Assembly: GCA_903828535.1 (NCBI GenBank)
Contig: CAIKMN010000002.1
Location: 1-58,068, forward strand
From: an uncultured Curvibacter sp.
GTDB taxonomy: Bacteria > Pseudomonadota > Gammaproteobacteria > Burkholderiales > Burkholderiaceae_C
DNA length: 58,068 bases
Direction of reading: 5' to 3'
How positions within the stretch are numbered: the stretch's first letter is position 1; each line of letters opens with the position of its first letter. Shown here one piece after another: positions 1 to 7,288 of the stretch. A program made the translations under genes and the position numbers. The notes beneath the pieces were generated by a model, which saw only the letters and a program-made list of their open reading frames with translations, did no database searches and was not told the origin of the DNA.

Positions 1-2
1 AA

Positions 3-2483
3 AAGCTGGCACGCGGCACAGCTAGTGAAGGCCGCATAATTGAACGGCTAAGAGGTACGTCTAACAGGGGCAGGTTCACTGACCCTGTAAAACGTGGCGC
101 TACGTCCTTCCCTCGAAACACGTTAATTCATCACTATAGTGAAGCGTTGGCAAAACAATCTAAGGCGTTGGAGTCGATTTGCGACAGATTGCGGAGGGAA
201 TACGGTGCTCATTTCAGAGCAAACTCGACACACATTCCGACTTCTGTGCCTCGTGGAGCAAACGGAGTCGCTTTTGATGGAAAGCTGTGGGTTTGGTGGG
301 ACGACCTCGATTTCAATGCATCACAGTTGGAAGCACATATTCGTCTGTCATTAGACGGAGAGCATCTCGAAGCGTCATATGAAGCAATTCTTCTGGCGAA
401 TGGTCGTCATGTCTCTGGGAATGTATACGAATTCGACGTGCCCGCTACTTCGACAGAGGCCAAGTTTAAAGAAGATAGCATGCTTACTTTAGGTAAGCTA
501 GGCCATCCAGGCATGCCTCTTGAGCGCGCTAATGCCTTGATAAAAGTTGGTGCTCCCAGGTTTGTGGGAAAGCCCGATGTACTGATGTCTCCACTATGGT
601 CTCAGATACAAGCAAAGCTTTTGAATTTCGACCGGGCGAGGCAAAAGGCCAAGGTACAACTAGATTGCAGCTCCGAACCTAACCTTATTCCGTATCTGAT
701 TGCAAATTCATCAATTAATCTGCTTCATGATGTTTTTCTGCTTGAGACTAAAAAACCTAAGGTGTTCAATTGGAGTAAATTTAGCCAAGATATTCTCAAA
801 GAGGTCGGAAATCCTTCAATTGCCTTGCCCGACCCTAATGCGGCTAACGCTATGGGTATTTTGCCTGCGGCGCGGCGTGGCGGTCGAGACCCGATTACAC
901 CGCTAGCGCGGGTACTGTGGGATGCCCCCACCTTAGAGAAAACGAAAGTAGGTACCGCTGCATCATCGGCCGCGATTGCGGCGTATGCCGCATCTCAACA
1001 GGGCTTAAATGCTTCTCAAGAAGCTGCTTTGCACCATGCGGCGGAACGAGCGCTTACCGTTATTTGGGGGCCGCCAGGTACTGGTAAAACTAAGACTCTC
1101 GCAGCTTTCCTCGATGCGCTCTCATATGCCGCGACTAATGAAGGTGGTTCTTTAAAAATATTGGTTACGGGACCAACTTACAAGGCTGTTGAAGAAGTTA
1201 TGTTCAGGGCAGCGAATATGTTGGCCAATAGCAAACCGGCTAACGTTTCAATGTACTTTGGATATTCATCCAGCAGGCAAGCGCGCCCTCAACCGTCGTC
1301 ACTACCTTCATCTGTAAAGTACACACCCATGTCGTTAGACGATAACGACCCCGATTTTCAGGCTTGCCGTCAAGCACTTTCCGGCACTACTGGGGTTGTA
1401 ATTGTCGGATGTCAAATTCGACAGGCAAGACGGTTCACTAAGAGTGTAATGGGGTCCTATGTACAGCCCTTATTTGATGTGGTCGTGCTTGACGAGAGCT
1501 CTCAAGTCCCTGTGTCACAGGCCTTGGCCGCGTTGTGTGGCTTAAAAGAGATTTCCCGTTTAATCGTAGCGGGTGACCATCTGCAAATGCCGCCAATTAC
1601 ATCTATTGAAGCGCCTTGCGAGGCGGCTTATCTGATAGGTAGTATTCAAACCTATCTGCGTGAACGGCCATTTGCAAGCAAGGTCCCAGTGTGTGTCCTG
1701 GAAACCAACTATCGCTCAGCCAAGGATATTGTTGCCTTTGCTGTCTCTATTGGATATCCGTCGACACTTACAGCTGCTTCCCCAAACATCAGTCTGCATT
1801 TAAATGCGGCGTTACCAGATAGGGCAACTTATCCATCAACATTACCCTGGTGTGACGAATACACCGATTTGCTCTCTACGAACAATCGAGTCGTCACATT
1901 GCTTCATGACGATGAGGTTTCTTCACAAGGAAATCACTTTGAGGCAGCCATGGTTGCAGGGGCCGTTTGGATGTTGCGCCAAAGTGTGAGTAGAGCTCTA
2001 GATGGAACCCTTAATTCTGCTGCTCATGGAACTCCCACAGCCGAGGAGTTTTGGACAAAGTCCATCGGGATTGTTACCCCCCATCGTGCGCAGCGTGCTT
2101 TAATAATCCAAGAGTTGGATAGCATTTTCCCAGGGGAAAAGAATCTGATAGAGGAGGCGGTTGACACCGTAGAGAGATTTCAGGGAGGCGAGCGCCACAC
2201 TATATTTGTCACGTTTGGCGTGGGTGATACAGATGTCATCGGTGGAGAAGAGGCATTCCTCATGCAACTTGAAAGAACAAATGTTGCAGTTTCTAGAGCC
2301 ATGGCGAAATGCGTCATCGTAATGCCCAAGACTCTTGCAGCTTACATCCCTGAAGACAAAAGAGTCATTGCTACAGCGTACGCGTTGAAAAACTATATCG
2401 AGGACTTCTGTAACGTTGCCATCAACACCGTTTTAGAGTCCGGTACAGAAAAACGCCCGGCACAAATTAGGTATCACCGATAA
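3..2483 (+). CDS. Superfamily 1B (UPF1/DNA2-like) helicase, 5' end outside window
   Basis: Probable ATP-dependent nucleic acid helicase. Counted from the TTG at 147 (778 residues), the motifs run in the order of SF1B enzymes: Walker A GPPGTGKT near residue 308, motif II LDESSQ near 448, GDHLQMPP near 475, ETNYRS near 518, ERFQGGERH near 675 and NVAVSRA near 711. DESSQ in place of DEAQ is the DNA2/NAM7 type. The frame has no stop from base 3 to the TTG and no Shine-Dalgarno precedes that TTG, so I read this as the C-terminal part of a longer protein. About 300 residues before Walker A match no domain I recognise. It is 16 bases from the next helicase on the same strand, so they are probably cotranscribed. 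AT-ended codons are frequent compared with the ribosomal genes, suggesting transfer. The helicase family is clear; a role in defence is inference from context. Confidence 0.85.
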   Translation, partial: KLARGTASEGRIIERLRGTSNRGRFTDPVKRGATSFPRNTLIHHYSEALAKQSKALESICDRLRREYGAHFRANSTHIPTSVPRGANGVAFDGKLWVWWDDLDFNASQLEAHIRLSLDGEHLEASYEAILLANGRHVSGNVYEFDVPATSTEAKFKEDSMLTLGKLGHPGMPLERANALIKVGAPRFVGKPDVLMSPLWSQIQAKLLNFDRARQKAKVQLDCSSEPNLIPYLIANSSINLLHDVFLLETKKPKVFNWSKFSQDILKEVGNPSIALPDPNAANAMGILPAARRGGRDPITPLARVLWDAPTLEKTKVGTAASSAAIAAYAASQQGLNASQEAALHHAAERALTVIWGPPGTGKTKTLAAFLDALSYAATNEGGSLKILVTGPTYKAVEEVMFRAANMLANSKPANVSMYFGYSSSRQARPQPSSLPSSVKYTPMSLDDNDPDFQACRQALSGTTGVVIVGCQIRQARRFTKSVMGSYVQPLFDVVVLDESSQVPVSQALAALCGLKEISRLIVAGDHLQMPPITSIEAPCEAAYLIGSIQTYLRERPFASKVPVCVLETNYRSAKDIVAFAVSIGYPSTLTAASPNISLHLNAALPDRATYPSTLPWCDEYTDLLSTNNRVVTLLHDDEVSSQGNHFEAAMVAGAVWMLRQSVSRALDGTLNSAAHGTPTAEEFWTKSIGIVTPHRAQRALIIQELDSIFPGEKNLIEEAVDTVERFQGGERHTIFVTFGVGDTDVIGGEEAFLMQLERTNVAVSRAMAKCVIVMPKTLAAYIPEDKRVIATAYALKNYIEDFCNVAINTVLESGTEKRPAQIRYHR

Positions 2484-2499
2484 AAATAATGGGCTCTTT

Positions 2500-4218
2500 A
2501 TGGCAAGAATGATTCCACAGTTGACGGCTGAGCAGATTAAGGCATTTCCATCACGCGCTGAAGCACGATTTTATGAGGCATGCAGTACTCAATTACCTTC
2601 TGAATTGGTGGTTATTTATAGTGCTAATTGGATTTACAGAGATGTACGCGGTTACCTTAGTGAAGGAGAAGCTGACTTTACAATAGTTTCTCCGCATGCT
2701 GGCGTACTAGTAGTTGAGGTCAAGGGAGGTGGGGTTACTTTTGATGCTGCTACTGGTGCTTGGCATTCAGTAGACCGCAACGGTACAAATAACCCCATTA
2801 AAGACCCATTTAAGCAAGCGTCTCGTGAACGTCACGCACTGCTGGACCAGATTACTGGTGCTGCTTCTTGGCGGCAGTGGGGAGGTACCCGTCTGACATT
2901 AGGGCATGCAGTGATGATGCCGGACATAGGAAGTCCGGCGCCGTTACTTGGTCCCGACCGTCCCATTGAACTCATAGGAGTGAATGAGGATATTAGCAAT
3001 CTAGCGCACTGGGTCCAGCGTCTAATGCAGTTTTGGCGGCGTCCGGATGATGATGCCTTAGGCACAAAGGGTGTACGCGTTGTTGAAGACATTCTATGCA
3101 GGTCTATCGAGGTTCGGCCTATTTTGCGTTCTACTATCGATGCTGTAGAACAGCAAAGAATAAAGCTTACTGCCAACCAGGCGAAGGTCTTTCGTGTTAT
3201 CGGCTCTCGCCGCCGGGCAATTGTTGCGGGTGGCGCAGGAACAGGAAAAACAGTACTGGCAGTTGAAAGAGCCAGAAATTTGGCCGAGTCTGGCAAACGT
3301 GTTTTGTTGCTCTGCTACAACCGCCCTTTAGCTGATTCTTTGGCAATCGCGCTACAGGACCAATCCGCAATCTTGGTAAAGAGTTTTCATCAACTGTGTG
3401 ACTATCGTATTCGCCAAGCAATTCAGAACGGGCGTGACCTTCTAAAAGAAGCAATCGAGGCTTACCCGGGTACAGAACAACAGTATCGTTTTGATGTCCA
3501 AATGCCCTACGCTCTTGCATTGTCTGCCGATGCATTAGAGGAGAAGTTTGACGCGATTATTGTCGATGAAGCCCAAGACTTTAGCGATGATTATTGGCTT
3601 GGAGTTGAGATGGTTCTTCGTGACACTACCGATGGCTATCTCTACATTTTTATCGATGAAAATCAAGCCCTTTATCCGAGAAGGTCAAAGTTGCCGATTG
3701 AGGACGAGCCCTATTATTTGACCAATAATTGTCGAAATACGGTTCCCATTCACAACGCGGCCTACTGCTACTATGAGGGTAGTCCAATCGACCCGCCAGA
3801 GCTGCTGGGCCATGACGTCATTTGGTCATCAGCTGATAAGGCTGAAGGGCAGGCTGACGCGGTTTTGAGGCGAGTTCATCAATGGGTTCATGTTGAAGGA
3901 ATAAAGCCTTCAGATGTGACTATCTTGGTGGCAAAGAGACCAAAGAATCAGCAATATGATTTATTGAGGAAAAAAGCTACAGCAGAAGACATAACTTTGG
4001 AGTTCGAAGTAATGGGGAAAGGCCCGTCTGTGCTTGTAGATACAGTCGCTCGATTTAAAGGGCTAGAGTCTCAAGCGGTGGTGCTTTGGCTTGGCGACGA
4101 GGTGGTGGAAGAACAACATTGGGAGACGGTGTACGTAGGAACAACTCGGGCAAAAACGCTGCTTGCTGTTGTTGCGTCACCTTCCGCTATAAGAACCCTT
4201 CGCGATAGTTGCAAGTAG
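2500..4218 (+). CDS. NERD-domain nuclease / superfamily 1A (UvrD-like) helicase
   Basis: A 572-residue fusion. Residues about 20-110 look like a NERD domain: an early Glu in EARFYE (22), GEADF with Asp59, then VEVKGG with Glu73 and Lys75, matching the D-ExK core of the PD-(D/E)XK nuclease fold. A UvrD/PcrA-type helicase follows, with Walker A GGAGTGKT (about 244-251), DEAQDF (about 358), IDENQ near 386, a VARFKGLESQ motif near 517 and VGTTRAK near 548. Known NERD proteins are DNA-processing enzymes often found on plasmids and islands; fusion to an SF1 helicase suggests cleavage coupled to unwinding. It lies 16 bases after the SF1B helicase and is followed by a terminator, so the two probably form one transcription unit. 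The ATG at 2500 has only a weak upstream purine stretch, which fits translational coupling. Confidence 0.88.
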   Translation: MARMIPQLTAEQIKAFPSRAEARFYEACSTQLPSELVVIYSANWIYRDVRGYLSEGEADFTIVSPHAGVLVVEVKGGGVTFDAATGAWHSVDRNGTNNPIKDPFKQASRERHALLDQITGAASWRQWGGTRLTLGHAVMMPDIGSPAPLLGPDRPIELIGVNEDISNLAHWVQRLMQFWRRPDDDALGTKGVRVVEDILCRSIEVRPILRSTIDAVEQQRIKLTANQAKVFRVIGSRRRAIVAGGAGTGKTVLAVERARNLAESGKRVLLLCYNRPLADSLAIALQDQSAILVKSFHQLCDYRIRQAIQNGRDLLKEAIEAYPGTEQQYRFDVQMPYALALSADALEEKFDAIIVDEAQDFSDDYWLGVEMVLRDTTDGYLYIFIDENQALYPRRSKLPIEDEPYYLTNNCRNTVPIHNAAYCYYEGSPIDPPELLGHDVIWSSADKAEGQADAVLRRVHQWVHVEGIKPSDVTILVAKRPKNQQYDLLRKKATAEDITLEFEVMGKGPSVLVDTVARFKGLESQAVVLWLGDEVVEEQHWETVYVGTTRAKTLLAVVASPSAIRTLRDSCK

Positions 4219-4326: not shown

Positions 4327-4755
4327 TTAATTACAGAAAATAGCGGAGCAAAGTCTGGGCCATACGATTTTCAGTTTCGCGAGCGACAGGTACGGAGCAT
4401 CTGCCTCTGAGTCATGTTCAATCTCCTCAAGGGTGAGCTGTGGAAAGTGCCATAGCGCCTCCTCAACAGAAACGCGGTCAAATAGCGTAGCCCAGCGACC
4501 TTGAAGAGTCTCAGGAGCGTTGTTCGCAACCTGTACAAATAATTCTGCCGCAGCAAATGACCATGGTGCCATCTTCTCCAGGCTACGTGCGTCGTCTACC
4601 GCTGTGCTCTCCGCAATCGCCTTTGCGATTTTTTCATCAAGCCACGTTTGCAGGGGGACTCCTGCCTCATGAGCCGCGACCAATGCCGCGCCAAATACCG
4701 ATGGCGAAATCGGTAGTACCGATTGAACCTCCATAGCTTTTAATTCCTCACTCAT
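4327..4755 (-). CDS. Hypothetical protein of the island
   Basis: A 142-residue protein that I do not recognise. It has no signal peptide and no clear membrane segment. It is Ala- and Glu-rich and probably mostly helical, with Trp at several positions in the second half (RWATLF, LWHFPQ, IVWPRL). The ATG at 4755 is preceded by GGGAG at a suitable distance, which supports real translation. It converges on the helicase pair, with the terminator at 4275-4303 between them, and its 5' end faces the KfrA-like gene. Its position inside the element suggests an accessory or regulatory role, but nothing in the sequence fixes a function. Confidence 0.6.
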   Translation of the reverse strand: MSEELKAMEVQSVLPISPSVFGAALVAAHEAGVPLQTWLDEKIAKAIAESTAVDDARSLEKMAPWSFAAAELFVQVANNAPETLQGRWATLFDRVSVEEALWHFPQLTLEEIEHDSEADAPYLSLAKLKIVWPRLCSAIFCN

Positions 4756-5256: not shown

Positions 5257-6894
5257 TCAGCGAGCGTCAGTTCCGGTCGCCGCTGGGCGTCGCAGTCCGG
5301 GGAAGGCAATCACGTTGGTGGGCGTATCAATGCCACGTCGCTGCTCTTCGATACGGACAGCCGGCGCTGTGGTGGCGTGGACTACCTGTTCGAGCCGGGA
5401 CTTCGCAGCTTCTGGGGCGTCGGCAAGAATATCGGCCACGGACAGCCCCTGGCCTGGGCGCAAACGCTGACGACCGCGATGGACTTGAGTGGTTGCGCGC
5501 TGCCCGCCATTGGCGAAGGCGGCATCGAGTCGATGAGCCAGCTGTGTCGTACACAGGTGGGAGTAGCGCAACAACATTCTCACATCCTTGTGCCCGCTGA
5601 AGGCCTGGAGGTCGATGAGGGAGAACTTCCCCGTCTCAGCAGTTCGGCTGATACCTTCATGGCGCAGGTCATGGATATGCAGGTCTTCAATATCAGCACG
5701 GTCGCAGATGCGACGCCAGGCTTTTTTGAGTTCATTTTCCGTGAGTGGGAACACTCGCTTGTCGGTTCGCGGCAGTGTCCGCAGTATCTCGACAATTTCA
5801 GCGCGCAGTGGCAATTTGCGCGGCTTGCCGTTTTTGGTCATGGGCAGGTAAACGGTACGTGCCTCGAGGTCCACGTTGTCCCAAGTGACGTTGAGTGTTT
5901 CCCCGCGTCTGGCAGCAGTCATCAATTGGAAATCAACGAAGGCCTCGTACAAGGGGACGTGAACGTAATCAGCTTCCGCGTTGGCACGACATTCGGCCAA
6001 GGCCTCTTTGATGTATGCCTTCTTCTGGTACACGGTGCCCAGGGTAGCTGCGTGACCTCGGGCCTCTGCCATGAGCTGCTCGGTGCGAGCTGCCAGGCTG
6101 CGCTCTCGGTCTTCCTCGATGGCGGCCGCAATGAGACGTTCTTCTTCACCGGACTTCAAGCGTCGGTTGCGCTCGTTGAAATACCGGGGACGGCGCACAC
6201 CGTCCATGGGGTTTTCGCCGACGCGGTACTTCCAGACCTTGATGGCCACGTTGCAGATGGCAGAGATGACGTCGATTTCGCGGTCGACGGTAGAGGGTGC
6301 GACGGTGTCGAGTCGGTCTTGGATATAGCCTTCGATGTCGGTCGTCTCGAGTTGGGCGAAGGGTTTGCTCATCCACTCCAGGCCGGTAGCGGGTTCGCGC
6401 ATGGCGCCGCGTGCCGTGCGGGCCTTGCCATCGGTAGCGATTTCCGCTTCTCGAAGCGCGTCGCGGCGAGCGAGGTTGCCAGCAAGGTCATCAAGCCAGC
6501 CCTGACACTTGTACTTTTCGACCTTTTCCCAGCCTTTGTGCTTCGGACCTTCTTCTTCCATGTAGCGGCGGATGAGCTGCGCAAAGGTGACCTGGTGCGC
6601 CTTTGTGTAGTCGATGAACAGACCCTGCCGACGCTCTGCCTCGATGCGGTTGACGCTGTCCTCGGCCTCTTGGTACGAGGTGGCCGTGAAACTGAGGGGG
6701 CGGTGTCCTTTGTTCCGAATGCGCACGGCGAAGGTGTCTTCGAGCTGGGTCAGACGCGGTTTGACCCCTTGTTTGCTCAGCTTGACGCAATAGGCCTTGG
6801 CTTGGTCGAGTTGGTCATAGGGGAAGGTGCAAAGGAGGTCGTCGCGGTTCTTGACGGTGACGACATAGTTGCTGCGATTGGTGATGTTGGCCAT
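5257..6894 (-). CDS. Tyrosine recombinase (phage/island integrase)
   Basis: A 545-residue site-specific recombinase. The catalytic set is complete: Arg329 (TAARRGE), Lys354 (TKNGK), His408 and Arg411 (HDLRHEG), His435 (SGHKD) and nucleophile Tyr444 (LLRYSHL). Residues 1-100 form an extra N-terminal region likely to bind arm sites, and 100-210 the SAM-like core-binding domain. About 100 residues follow the catalytic Tyr, a long basic tail for this family. The gene begins 168 bases from the 3' end of tRNA-Pro and reads away from it, the classic arrangement when the tRNA 3' end is the attachment site. GC-rich codon use here differs from the AT-richer helicases, which hints at a mosaic element. 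The start ATG follows GGGAACC, a modest ribosome-binding site. Confidence 0.93.
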   Translation of the reverse strand: MANITNRSNYVVTVKNRDDLLCTFPYDQLDQAKAYCVKLSKQGVKPRLTQLEDTFAVRIRNKGHRPLSFTATSYQEAEDSVNRIEAERRQGLFIDYTKAHQVTFAQLIRRYMEEEGPKHKGWEKVEKYKCQGWLDDLAGNLARRDALREAEIATDGKARTARGAMREPATGLEWMSKPFAQLETTDIEGYIQDRLDTVAPSTVDREIDVISAICNVAIKVWKYRVGENPMDGVRRPRYFNERNRRLKSGEEERLIAAAIEEDRERSLAARTEQLMAEARGHAATLGTVYQKKAYIKEALAECRANAEADYVHVPLYEAFVDFQLMTAARRGETLNVTWDNVDLEARTVYLPMTKNGKPRKLPLRAEIVEILRTLPRTDKRVFPLTENELKKAWRRICDRADIEDLHIHDLRHEGISRTAETGKFSLIDLQAFSGHKDVRMLLRYSHLCTTQLAHRLDAAFANGGQRATTQVHRGRQRLRPGQGLSVADILADAPEAAKSRLEQVVHATTAPAVRIEEQRRGIDTPTNVIAFPGLRRPAATGTDAR

Positions 6895-7062: not shown

Positions 7063-7139
7063 TGGTCGGGGTGAGAGGATTCGAACCTCCGGCCTCTACG
7101 TCCCGAACGTAGCGCTTTACCAGACTAAGCTACACCCCG
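7063..7139 (-). tRNA. tRNA-Pro (CGG)
   Basis: A 77-base cloverleaf with encoded CCA. The acceptor stem pairs CGGGGTG with CACCCCG. The anticodon arm is CTACG, loop TTCGGGA, CGTAG, giving anticodon CGG. The T arm contains GGTTCGAATCC. Its 3' end faces the integrase, so it is the likely attachment site of the island. Confidence 0.95.
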
Positions 7140-7163
7140 ATTGTGTAGGTTGCTCACCAATTC

Positions 7164-7190
7164 AAAGGCCCACTGAAGTGGGCCTTTTTT
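7164..7190. terminator. Hairpin between the two tRNAs
   Basis: An 11-base-pair stem (AAAGGCCCACT with AGTGGGCCTTT) with a two-base loop. Six T residues follow on the plus strand and only three on the minus strand, the direction of the tRNA genes. It may therefore act as a processing signal or weak terminator after tRNA-fMet. Confidence 0.55.
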
Positions 7191-7211
7191 GAGGGAACGT
7201 CCCTTTTTGAT

Positions 7212-7288
<77 letters not shown>

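What the first reader, a model, noticed from the sequence alone, without database searches (positions are those of the whole stretch)
1..4218. Two-helicase operon (SF1B helicase plus NERD-nuclease/SF1A helicase) as a candidate new defence system
Two unrelated superfamily 1 helicases lie 16 bases apart on one strand in an integrated element, and the second carries a NERD nuclease core (Asp59, Glu73, Lys75). Nuclease-helicase combinations are a recurrent theme in anti-phage and anti-plasmid systems, but I cannot match this exact pair to a named system. The set may include further genes to the left of the window.
Basis: partly seen in the sequence, partly recalled or inferred. Interest (0 to 1): 0.75.

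Follow-up and report, generated by a model that had tools for sequence, protein, structure and literature searches.

The report
IS-cut defence operon with NERD helicase
The two helicase genes are real, but the first is the back half of a larger gene cut off by a jumping element, and the second belongs to a family of nuclease-helicases often found right beside the main genes of several known anti-virus systems.

Summary
Both ORFs exist, but bases 1-78 are the right end of an IS3-type insertion sequence also found at the ends of contigs C4 and C33. Gene 1 (79-2483) is therefore a 5'-truncated remnant. Close intact relatives are ~1415 aa; the window keeps residues ~620 onward, with all SF1B motifs. 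The missing ~617 residues carry four invariant cysteines around PD-(D/E)xK-type motifs (Dna2/Cas4-like by motif only) and were not found in the assembly, while two control genomes matched. A DNA methyltransferase gene touches gene 1 in 15 of 21 relatives; NERD-helicase is beside it in 0 of 21. Gene 2 is an intact NERD-SF1A helicase matching PADLOC RTasNERD-Hel end to end. Of 24 other loci of its family, 16 adjoin DISARM-like (9), Druantia (3) or Tiamat (4, one a fragment) genes, 8 no recognised core, 0 a gene-1 relative. In an 18-row tree its groups largely follow the partner; the window copy groups with Tiamat-linked ones. Verdict: not a conserved two-gene system; most likely a decayed operon joining a NERD-helicase satellite to a Dna2-like core, a pair seen only here. 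The wider pattern, one satellite family with several cores, is the interesting part; my searches found no paper describing it.

The parts
1..78 (+). Right end of an IS3-type insertion sequence, with the last codons of its transposase
   Evidence: 78 of 78 identical to the C4 contig end; the 64 bases at the C33 start are identical; transposase C-terminus, read into C4, matches rve_2 above cut-off; a similar terminal repeat at the start of C18 and the end of C20 is taken as the left end
79..2483 (+). 5'-truncated gene 1: C-terminal ~800 aa of a ~1415-aa Dna2-like protein; SF1B helicase part intact
   Evidence: Residues 4-801 of the frame from base 78 align to 620-1415 of L085 at 49.5% identity; full-length relatives
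1068..1091 (+). Walker A motif GPPGTGKT of gene 1
1491..1505 (+). Walker B motif DESSQ of gene 1
2500..4218 (+). Gene 2: NERD nuclease domain fused to SF1A (UvrD-type) helicase, 572 aa, intact
   Evidence: Pfam NERD 32 bits and UvrD-helicase 37.5 bits; PADLOC RTasNERD-Hel 224.9 bits over residues 1-561
2674..2724 (+). NERD active-site stretch, codons of Asp59 to Lys75
   Evidence: D59, E73 and K75 invariant in 18 aligned family members
3229..3252 (+). Walker A motif GGAGTGKT of gene 2
4327..4755 (-). 142-aa ORF of unknown function between gene 2 and the integrase
   Evidence: No hit at or below 0.001 in Pfam, PADLOC, NCBIfam or PHROGs; one PADLOC hit at 0.03
5257..6894 (-). Tyrosine integrase, 545 aa
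   Evidence: Phage_integrase 72.8 bits; phrog_1 integrase 143 bits
7063..7139 (-). tRNA-Pro(cgg), possible attachment site
   Evidence: no second copy found

Best explanation
The locus is the decayed right part of an integrated defence operon. Gene 1 was its core: a Dna2-like protein with an N-terminal PD-(D/E)xK, probably iron-sulphur, nuclease and a C-terminal SF1B helicase. Its closest relatives are paired with a DNA methyltransferase and probably unwind and cut DNA that lacks the host mark. Gene 2 is a NERD-nuclease/SF1A-helicase satellite lying right behind the core; it probably loads on DNA ends or single strands exposed by the core and destroys them. An IS3-type insertion, or a deletion starting at it, took away the N-terminal half of gene 1, so the core is probably inactive here while the satellite stays intact. 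Shown: the IS end, the truncation, intact motifs, and the neighbours in relatives. Inferred: nuclease activity of the lost half, the methyl mark as self-signal, co-transcription and the division of labour.
For: IS end at the break. N-terminal half not found in the assembly, while the query matched two control genomes at 41% and 32% identity. Lost half: C19, D142, K181, C301, C304 and C329 are invariant in all 15 aligned relatives, D179 in at least 90%. Methyltransferase touching gene 1 in 15 of 21 relatives and within 4 kb in one more. NERD-helicase family next to DISARM-like, Druantia or Tiamat genes in 16 of 24 loci, and in all 16 it starts at most 12 bases after, or overlaps, the gene before it. 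Groups of the NERD-helicase tree largely follow the partner (18 rows). Both families are cargo at the same prophage site in related prophages.
Against: Core and satellite of these two families were seen together only in this window. The window has none of the usual partners: no methyltransferase of the gene-1 type, TmtA, DrmA, DrmB or DruE anywhere in its 58 kb at E <= 1e-3. The window's NERD-helicase groups with Tiamat-linked ones (98/98), so the pairing may be an accident. The nuclease call on the lost half rests on motifs: Pfam gave nothing relevant for 15 members, the PDB profile search nothing relevant, and hhalign to an AddA-type nuclease profile 0.5% probability. No structure could be run. 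No target-site duplication was recognised at the IS ends, so insertion versus deletion is open.
Confidence: 0.6

Rival explanations
1. The truncated helicase still works: gene 1 has become a helicase-only partner and gene 2 supplies the nuclease, a two-gene system made by the insertion.
For: All SF1B motifs are present and about 800 codons are open with no stop; in-frame start codons exist before the helicase motifs (TTG 147, GTG 246, ATG 480 and others); 16-base spacing; gene 2 has its own nuclease site.
Against: 20 of the 21 relatives counted have the N-terminal half; the other (L140) is cut by its contig end. No promoter or start was tested.
Confidence: 0.12
2. Gene 2 is a stand-alone, Nhi-like defence gene and gene 1 is an unrelated, dying neighbour.
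For: 8 of 24 NERD-helicase loci have no recognised core; relatives of genes 1 and 2 were never seen together elsewhere.
Against: In 16 of 24 loci the family is tightly placed behind or beside a core operon; the window's order and spacing fit that pattern; all four of its nearest tree neighbours stand behind a TmtA gene or a piece of one.
Confidence: 0.18
3. Assembly effect: the N-terminal half lies on a contig missing from the assembly behind the collapsed IS, so the element is larger than seen.
For: Three right IS ends but only two left ends were recognised; no flank triplets match; no second attachment site.
Against: The assembly is given as 99.99% complete in 36 contigs. Even if the half exists elsewhere, an IS end borders the kept half, so the gene is interrupted.
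Confidence: 0.15
4. The two helicases serve replication or repair of the integrated element and not defence.
For: Integrated element with integrase; helicases occur in many mobile elements (general knowledge).
Against: Relatives sit in neighbourhoods with BREX, DISARM-like, Druantia, Tiamat and restriction-type genes.
Confidence: 0.06

Closest known systems
PADLOC RTasNERD-Hel (PDLC03813, filed under DRT)
   Same: End-to-end match of gene 2, 224.9 bits over residues 1-561 against model 1-513 of 519.
   Different: The model name suggests a reverse transcriptase partner; none of the four window proteins searched is one, and the relatives examined sit beside other cores or none recognised (reverse transcriptases were not searched for there). 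The contig ends upstream, so a partner there cannot be excluded.
Tiamat (TmtA)
   Same: The closest gene-2 relatives (39-41% identity) directly follow TmtA in L034, L080 and L168, and a TmtA C-terminal piece in L169; the window copy groups with them, 98/98.
   Different: No TmtA in the window; its place is taken by the gene-1 remnant.
DISARM (DrmA, DrmB, DrmMII)
   Same: A gene-2 relative adjoins DrmA or DrmB matches in 9 of 24 loci; weaker matches in L166, L170 and L171.
   Different: No DrmA or DrmB in the window.
Druantia (DruE)
   Same: A gene-2 relative follows DruE in 3 of 24 loci.
   Different: No DruE in the window.
Eukaryotic Dna2 and Cas4/AddB-type iron-sulphur nucleases
   Same: Layout of the full-length gene-1 family: one cysteine before and three after a D...DxK motif set, then an SF1B helicase (the comparison is recalled).
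   Different: No significant profile match of the N-terminal half in any library tried.
Dpd DpdJ and Mokosh MkoA/MkoC (PADLOC models)
   Same: Share the SF1B helicase core with gene 1 (136.6, 94.2 and 71.5 bits).
   Different: Only the helicase part aligns, in models of 1112-2112 aa.
CoCoNuT CnuH
   Same: Also a UPF1/DNA2-like SF1 helicase in a prokaryotic defence system (passages of PMC11090510).
   Different: Partnered with CnuB/McrB GTPases in that paper; no sequence comparison was made here.

Membership tests
RTasNERD-Hel (PADLOC) | Full-length match to the NERD-helicase model | tested here: met
   224.9 bits, residues 1-561 to model 1-513 of 519
RTasNERD-Hel (PADLOC) | Neighbouring reverse transcriptase | tested here: inconclusive
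   Not among the four window proteins searched; upstream DNA is not on the contig
Nhi | Full-length match to the Nhi nuclease-helicase model | tested here: not met
   PADLOC Nhi 32 bits, best stretch only 223-272, helicase part
Tiamat | TmtA core protein | tested here: not met
   No TmtA hit for gene 1 nor anywhere in the window by tblastn; only the satellite is related
DISARM | DrmA and DrmB | tested here: not met
   No hit among the four proteins nor in the window by tblastn
Druantia | DruE | tested here: not met
   No hit among the four proteins nor in the window by tblastn
Mokosh | Full-length MkoA or MkoC | tested here: not met
   Helicase region only
Dpd | Full-length DpdJ | tested here: not met
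   136.6 bits over model 41-487 of 2112
Dpd | 7-deazaguanine modification genes nearby | not tested
   Not searched in the window
Gene-1 family (Dna2-like with methyltransferase, unnamed) | SF1B helicase half at family-level identity | tested here: met
   49.5% identity to L085 over 802 columns
Gene-1 family (Dna2-like with methyltransferase, unnamed) | N-terminal half with four cysteines and PD-(D/E)xK-type motifs | tested here: not met
   Not found in window or assembly; two control genomes matched
Gene-1 family (Dna2-like with methyltransferase, unnamed) | Adjacent DNA methyltransferase of the shared type | tested here: not met
   Touching in 15 of 21 relatives; none in the window at E <= 1e-3; the DNA left of the contig cannot be tested

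The most novel reading that the evidence does not exclude
A NERD-nuclease/SF1A-helicase acts as a general plug-in effector that several unrelated defence cores (Tiamat, DISARM, Druantia and an unnamed Dna2-like, methyltransferase-linked core) have each taken up as the gene right behind or beside the core, each core largely keeping its own satellite lineage; the window catches a recent transfer of a Tiamat-type satellite to the Dna2-like core.
Probability: 0.35. Interest if true: 0.7.

Novelty: new variant of a known kind. Interest (0 to 1): 0.42.

Why it matters
If one nuclease-helicase family serves several otherwise unrelated cores, these systems may share a final DNA-destruction step, and the satellite would be a common target for phage counter-defence. 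That can be tested by removing the satellite in laboratory strains that carry intact Tiamat, DISARM or Druantia operons. The unnamed Dna2-like core, found in prophage-like contigs and on plasmids beside a methyltransferase, and in two loci beside BREX genes, is a candidate defence component in its own right.

Tried and rejected
PDB profile search of that half gave nothing relevant. Pfam on 15 members gave nothing relevant. hhalign against an AddA-type nuclease profile gave 0.5% probability. A viral-contig scan with gene 2 alone found no relative. The left boundary of the element was sought by a second tRNA-Pro copy and by chromosome order in a close relative; neither resolved it, because the relative is itself rearranged there. 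Pairing IS ends by target-site duplication failed: right flanks CTG, GTG and GGC, left flanks AAC and GTC.

Rejected: gene 1 as DpdJ or Mokosh (only the helicase core matches); gene 1 beginning at base 1 (those bases are an IS end); a reverse-transcriptase system (no evidence on the contig, though the upstream side is missing).

Rows dropped, gene 1: of 48 genome loci, 5 near full-length ones were counted, 5 partial ones (L093-L097) were scanned but not counted, and 38 helicase-only or weak ones were not scanned. Of 13 viral loci, one helicase-only locus (L148) was left out. L087 (a fragment) was scanned but not counted. L038 (a distant relative on a megaplasmid) was checked at the end: no NERD-helicase, no methyltransferase of the shared type; not in the 21. 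L141 and L143 gave identical results, so the 21 are at most 20 distinct.

Rows dropped, gene 2: of 48 plasmid records, 13 neighbourhoods were opened and 12 counted; H6 and H8 look like duplicates of H5 and H7; H14-H16 and the weaker rows were not opened. Of the 76 other genomes with a match at E <= 0.001, five were opened (L080-L084); many of the rest match only the helicase part. All four other genomes and both were opened. The one phage record was opened. Total 12 + 5 + 4 + 2 + 1 = 24. The tree holds 18 rows: the window and 17 of these 24.

Full report
WHAT IS THERE. The window is contig C2 of a 36-contig, 2.34-Mb assembly. Two + strand frames lie at its left edge, 3..2483 and 2500..4218, 16 bases apart. 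The first matches AAA_11 and AAA_12 (SF1B, UPF1-like); the second matches NERD, UvrD-helicase and UvrD_C_2. NERD residues D59, E73 and K75 and Gln106 are invariant in 18 family members; Walker A and DEAQD are in place. To the right lie a 142-aa ORF without significant matches, a tyrosine integrase and tRNA-Pro.

GENE 1 IS CUT AT AN IS. Bases 1-78 equal the end of contig C4 in 78 of 78 positions, and the first 64 bases of C33 equal the matching part. The stretch ends in a terminal repeat (TGAACCTGCCCCTG) and, read into C4, encodes a transposase C-terminus that passes the rve_2 cut-off. A near-identical repeat at the start of C18 and the end of C20 is taken as the left end of the same element. 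Native sequence therefore begins at about 79. Residues 4-801 of that frame align to residues 620-1415 of the closest relative held, at 49.5% identity; relatives on Rhizobium and Bradyrhizobium plasmids are 1414 and 1416 aa, and the 21 relatives counted below run to about 1510 aa. The N-terminal half was not found in the assembly with queries from two relatives; the query found it in two control genomes at 41% and 32% identity. In-frame start codons after the IS are TTG 147, 168 and 189, GTG 246, and the first ATG at 480, so a shortened helicase could in principle be made. Whether the IS inserted simply or a deletion starts at it is open: no flank triplets match.

WHAT GENE 1 WAS. In 15 relatives the missing half has 37 invariant columns; four are cysteines (C19, C301, C304, C329), although cysteine makes up only 1.2% of residues. 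Between them lie D142 (GLxPDI), D179-x-K181 and E193/Y197 (D179 in at least 90% of rows). That order is the one I recall for Dna2, Cas4 and AddB iron-sulphur nucleases. No library confirmed it, so it stays an inference from motifs. The C-terminal half carries GPPGTGKT, DESSQ, GDHLQMPP, NYRS, VDTVERFQGG and NVAVSRA. In an order-wide sample a relative at E <= 1e-20 occurred in 4 of 399 genomes, the window's own included.

NEIGHBOURS OF GENE-1 RELATIVES. I counted 21 loci with a near full-length relative: L036, L037, L085, L086, L088-L092 and L136-L147 (L141 and L143 gave identical results; L140 is cut by its contig end; flanks are short in some, such as L090 and L142). A DNA methyltransferase of one family was found in 16 of 21: touching and convergent in 14, touching and tandem in one (L144), 3.5 kb away in one (L086). 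The other five (L090, L091, L092, L146, L147) are 28-30% identical to the L085 protein, as are L086 and L145, which do have it; each of the five has a neighbouring ORF with only a short, weak methyltransferase match (27-74 residues). NERD-helicase was found in 0 of 21 at E <= 1e-6, and in 0 of the six partial loci scanned with them and not in L038. Further neighbours are a TnsA/ResIII protein, a second methyltransferase and an AddA-type helicase-nuclease (L085 searched; L136 and L141 look alike), HerA (L086), and BREX PglX, PglZ and BrxL (L088; 943, 1402 and 977 bits; L137 looks alike). Seven loci (L085, L088, L137-L140, L142) sit at one site in related prophage-like contigs, beside a 158-aa protein and a protein that looks like a lysin (the name lysin is by eye).

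NEIGHBOURS OF GENE-2 RELATIVES. In 24 non-window loci I found DrmA or DrmB matches next to it in 9 (L035, L039, L163, L164, L166, L170-L173), DruE in 3 (L082, L165, L197), TmtA in 4 (L034, L080, L168, and L169), and no recognised core in 8 (L040, L081, L083, L084, L167, L198, L199, L200). In L169 only the last ~107 residues of TmtA stand before the NERD-helicase (46% identical to L080's), then comes an IS, then a piece with DruE-like N-terminal matches, so that locus is rearranged. L200 is a partial gene and L081 lacks the NERD part. Gene-1 relatives: 0 of 24. In all 16 core-linked loci the NERD-helicase starts at most 12 bases after, or overlaps, the gene before it; that gene is the core itself, or its end piece, in 12, and another gene (Vsr-like in L170 and L171, others in L166 and L173) in 4. 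PADLOC scores for tested cores: TmtA 1279, 2331 and 2048 bits; DruE 1528 and 1492; DrmA 679 and 651; DrmB 285. The other core calls rest on tblastn to those proteins; they are weak for L170, L171 and L166 (DrmA 127-235 bits). In L166 the helicase and DUF1998 genes look broken by an IS. None of these cores, nor the shared methyltransferase, is found in the 58-kb window at E <= 1e-3.

TREE. An IQ-TREE of 18 NERD-helicases (window and 17 of the 24; L173 and L197 are not in it) puts the four Tiamat-linked copies and the window copy in one group (98/98), five DISARM-linked copies in another (100/100), the two Druantia-linked copies together (100/98, one with a long branch whose place is unsure), and the two near-identical DISARM-like prophage copies (L170, L171) elsewhere, with L166 (95/93). 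So satellites largely stay with their cores, although DISARM-like loci have at least two satellite lineages. The window copy has its nearest kin beside Tiamat but stands behind gene 1. L170 and L171 occupy the same prophage site that carries gene 1 and methyltransferase in other prophages; this is a possible route by which the two families met, but it is an inference.

HOW IT WOULD WORK. Best reading: gene 1, when whole, unwinds DNA and cuts it unless the partner methyltransferase has marked it; gene 2, placed right behind, digests the exposed strands. In the window the N-terminal half of gene 1 is gone, so the core is probably dead, and gene 2 is either idle or acts alone. Truncation, motifs and neighbours are shown; activities are inferred.

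LITERATURE. I saw passages, found by term, of PMC12458937 (YprA-family helicases), PMC12839542 (BREX), PMC10952713 (shared domains) and PMC11090510 (CoCoNuTs), and only listings with abstract starts of other papers. PMC12458937 has NERD twice: for a rare Bacillati system, which by its abstract should be TALON, and in a reference. PMC10952713 lists NERD for Mokosh type I and Nhi-like. PMC12839542 has NERD inside PglW and in some DndF. PMC11090510 has no NERD; it describes a UPF1-like helicase, CnuH. Searches for NERD with Druantia and DISARM (20 of 25 listed), nuclease-related domain with Tiamat, DISARM, Druantia and UvrD (6 of 6), Dna2-like with methyltransferase and prophage (12 of 41), and Nhi with NERD (12 of 198) showed no paper that describes this satellite across the three systems, judged from titles, abstract starts and the passages above; most subscription papers are not in that library. 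Nhi, Tiamat and Mokosh as named systems are otherwise recalled or taken from PADLOC model names.

VERDICT. Observation partly confirmed, interpretation partly supported. The exact pair is a single, decayed case. The family-level pattern deserves a proper census.

Noticed in passing
L085:7206-9357, L088:14262-16403, L137:14256-16394, L138, L139, L140, L142; L170:8235-11105, L171:7629-12090: One prophage site, beside a 158-aa protein and a lysin-like protein, carries gene-1/methyltransferase cargo in seven loci and DISARM-like/Dcm/Vsr-like/NERD-helicase cargo in two others: a swap site for defence cargo.
   Followed up: partly
L088:1464-15404 and L137:1368-15398: BREX genes PglX, PglZ and BrxL lie directly before the gene-1 relative and its convergent methyltransferase (L088 by model; L137 by likeness).
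   Followed up: partly
L142:198-5694: The gene-1 relative is only 39% identical to the L085 one while the neighbouring methyltransferase is 92% identical, suggesting recombination between the two genes or a chimeric contig.
   Followed up: no
L169:4747-10091: A TmtA C-terminal piece and an intact NERD-helicase stand on one side of an IS with an rve transposase, a DruE-like N-terminal piece on the other: another core cut at an IS while the satellite stays open.
   Followed up: partly
window 7063-7288 and L186, L187: In a close relative (G1355) part of the tRNA-Pro/tRNA-Met stretch occurs on two contigs, each copy broken on one side, so this site is rearranged there too.
   Followed up: partly
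L173:6613-11991: A 1792-aa protein (P-loop by eye) abuts the NERD-helicase with no gap, with DrmA and DrmB matches after it.
   Followed up: no
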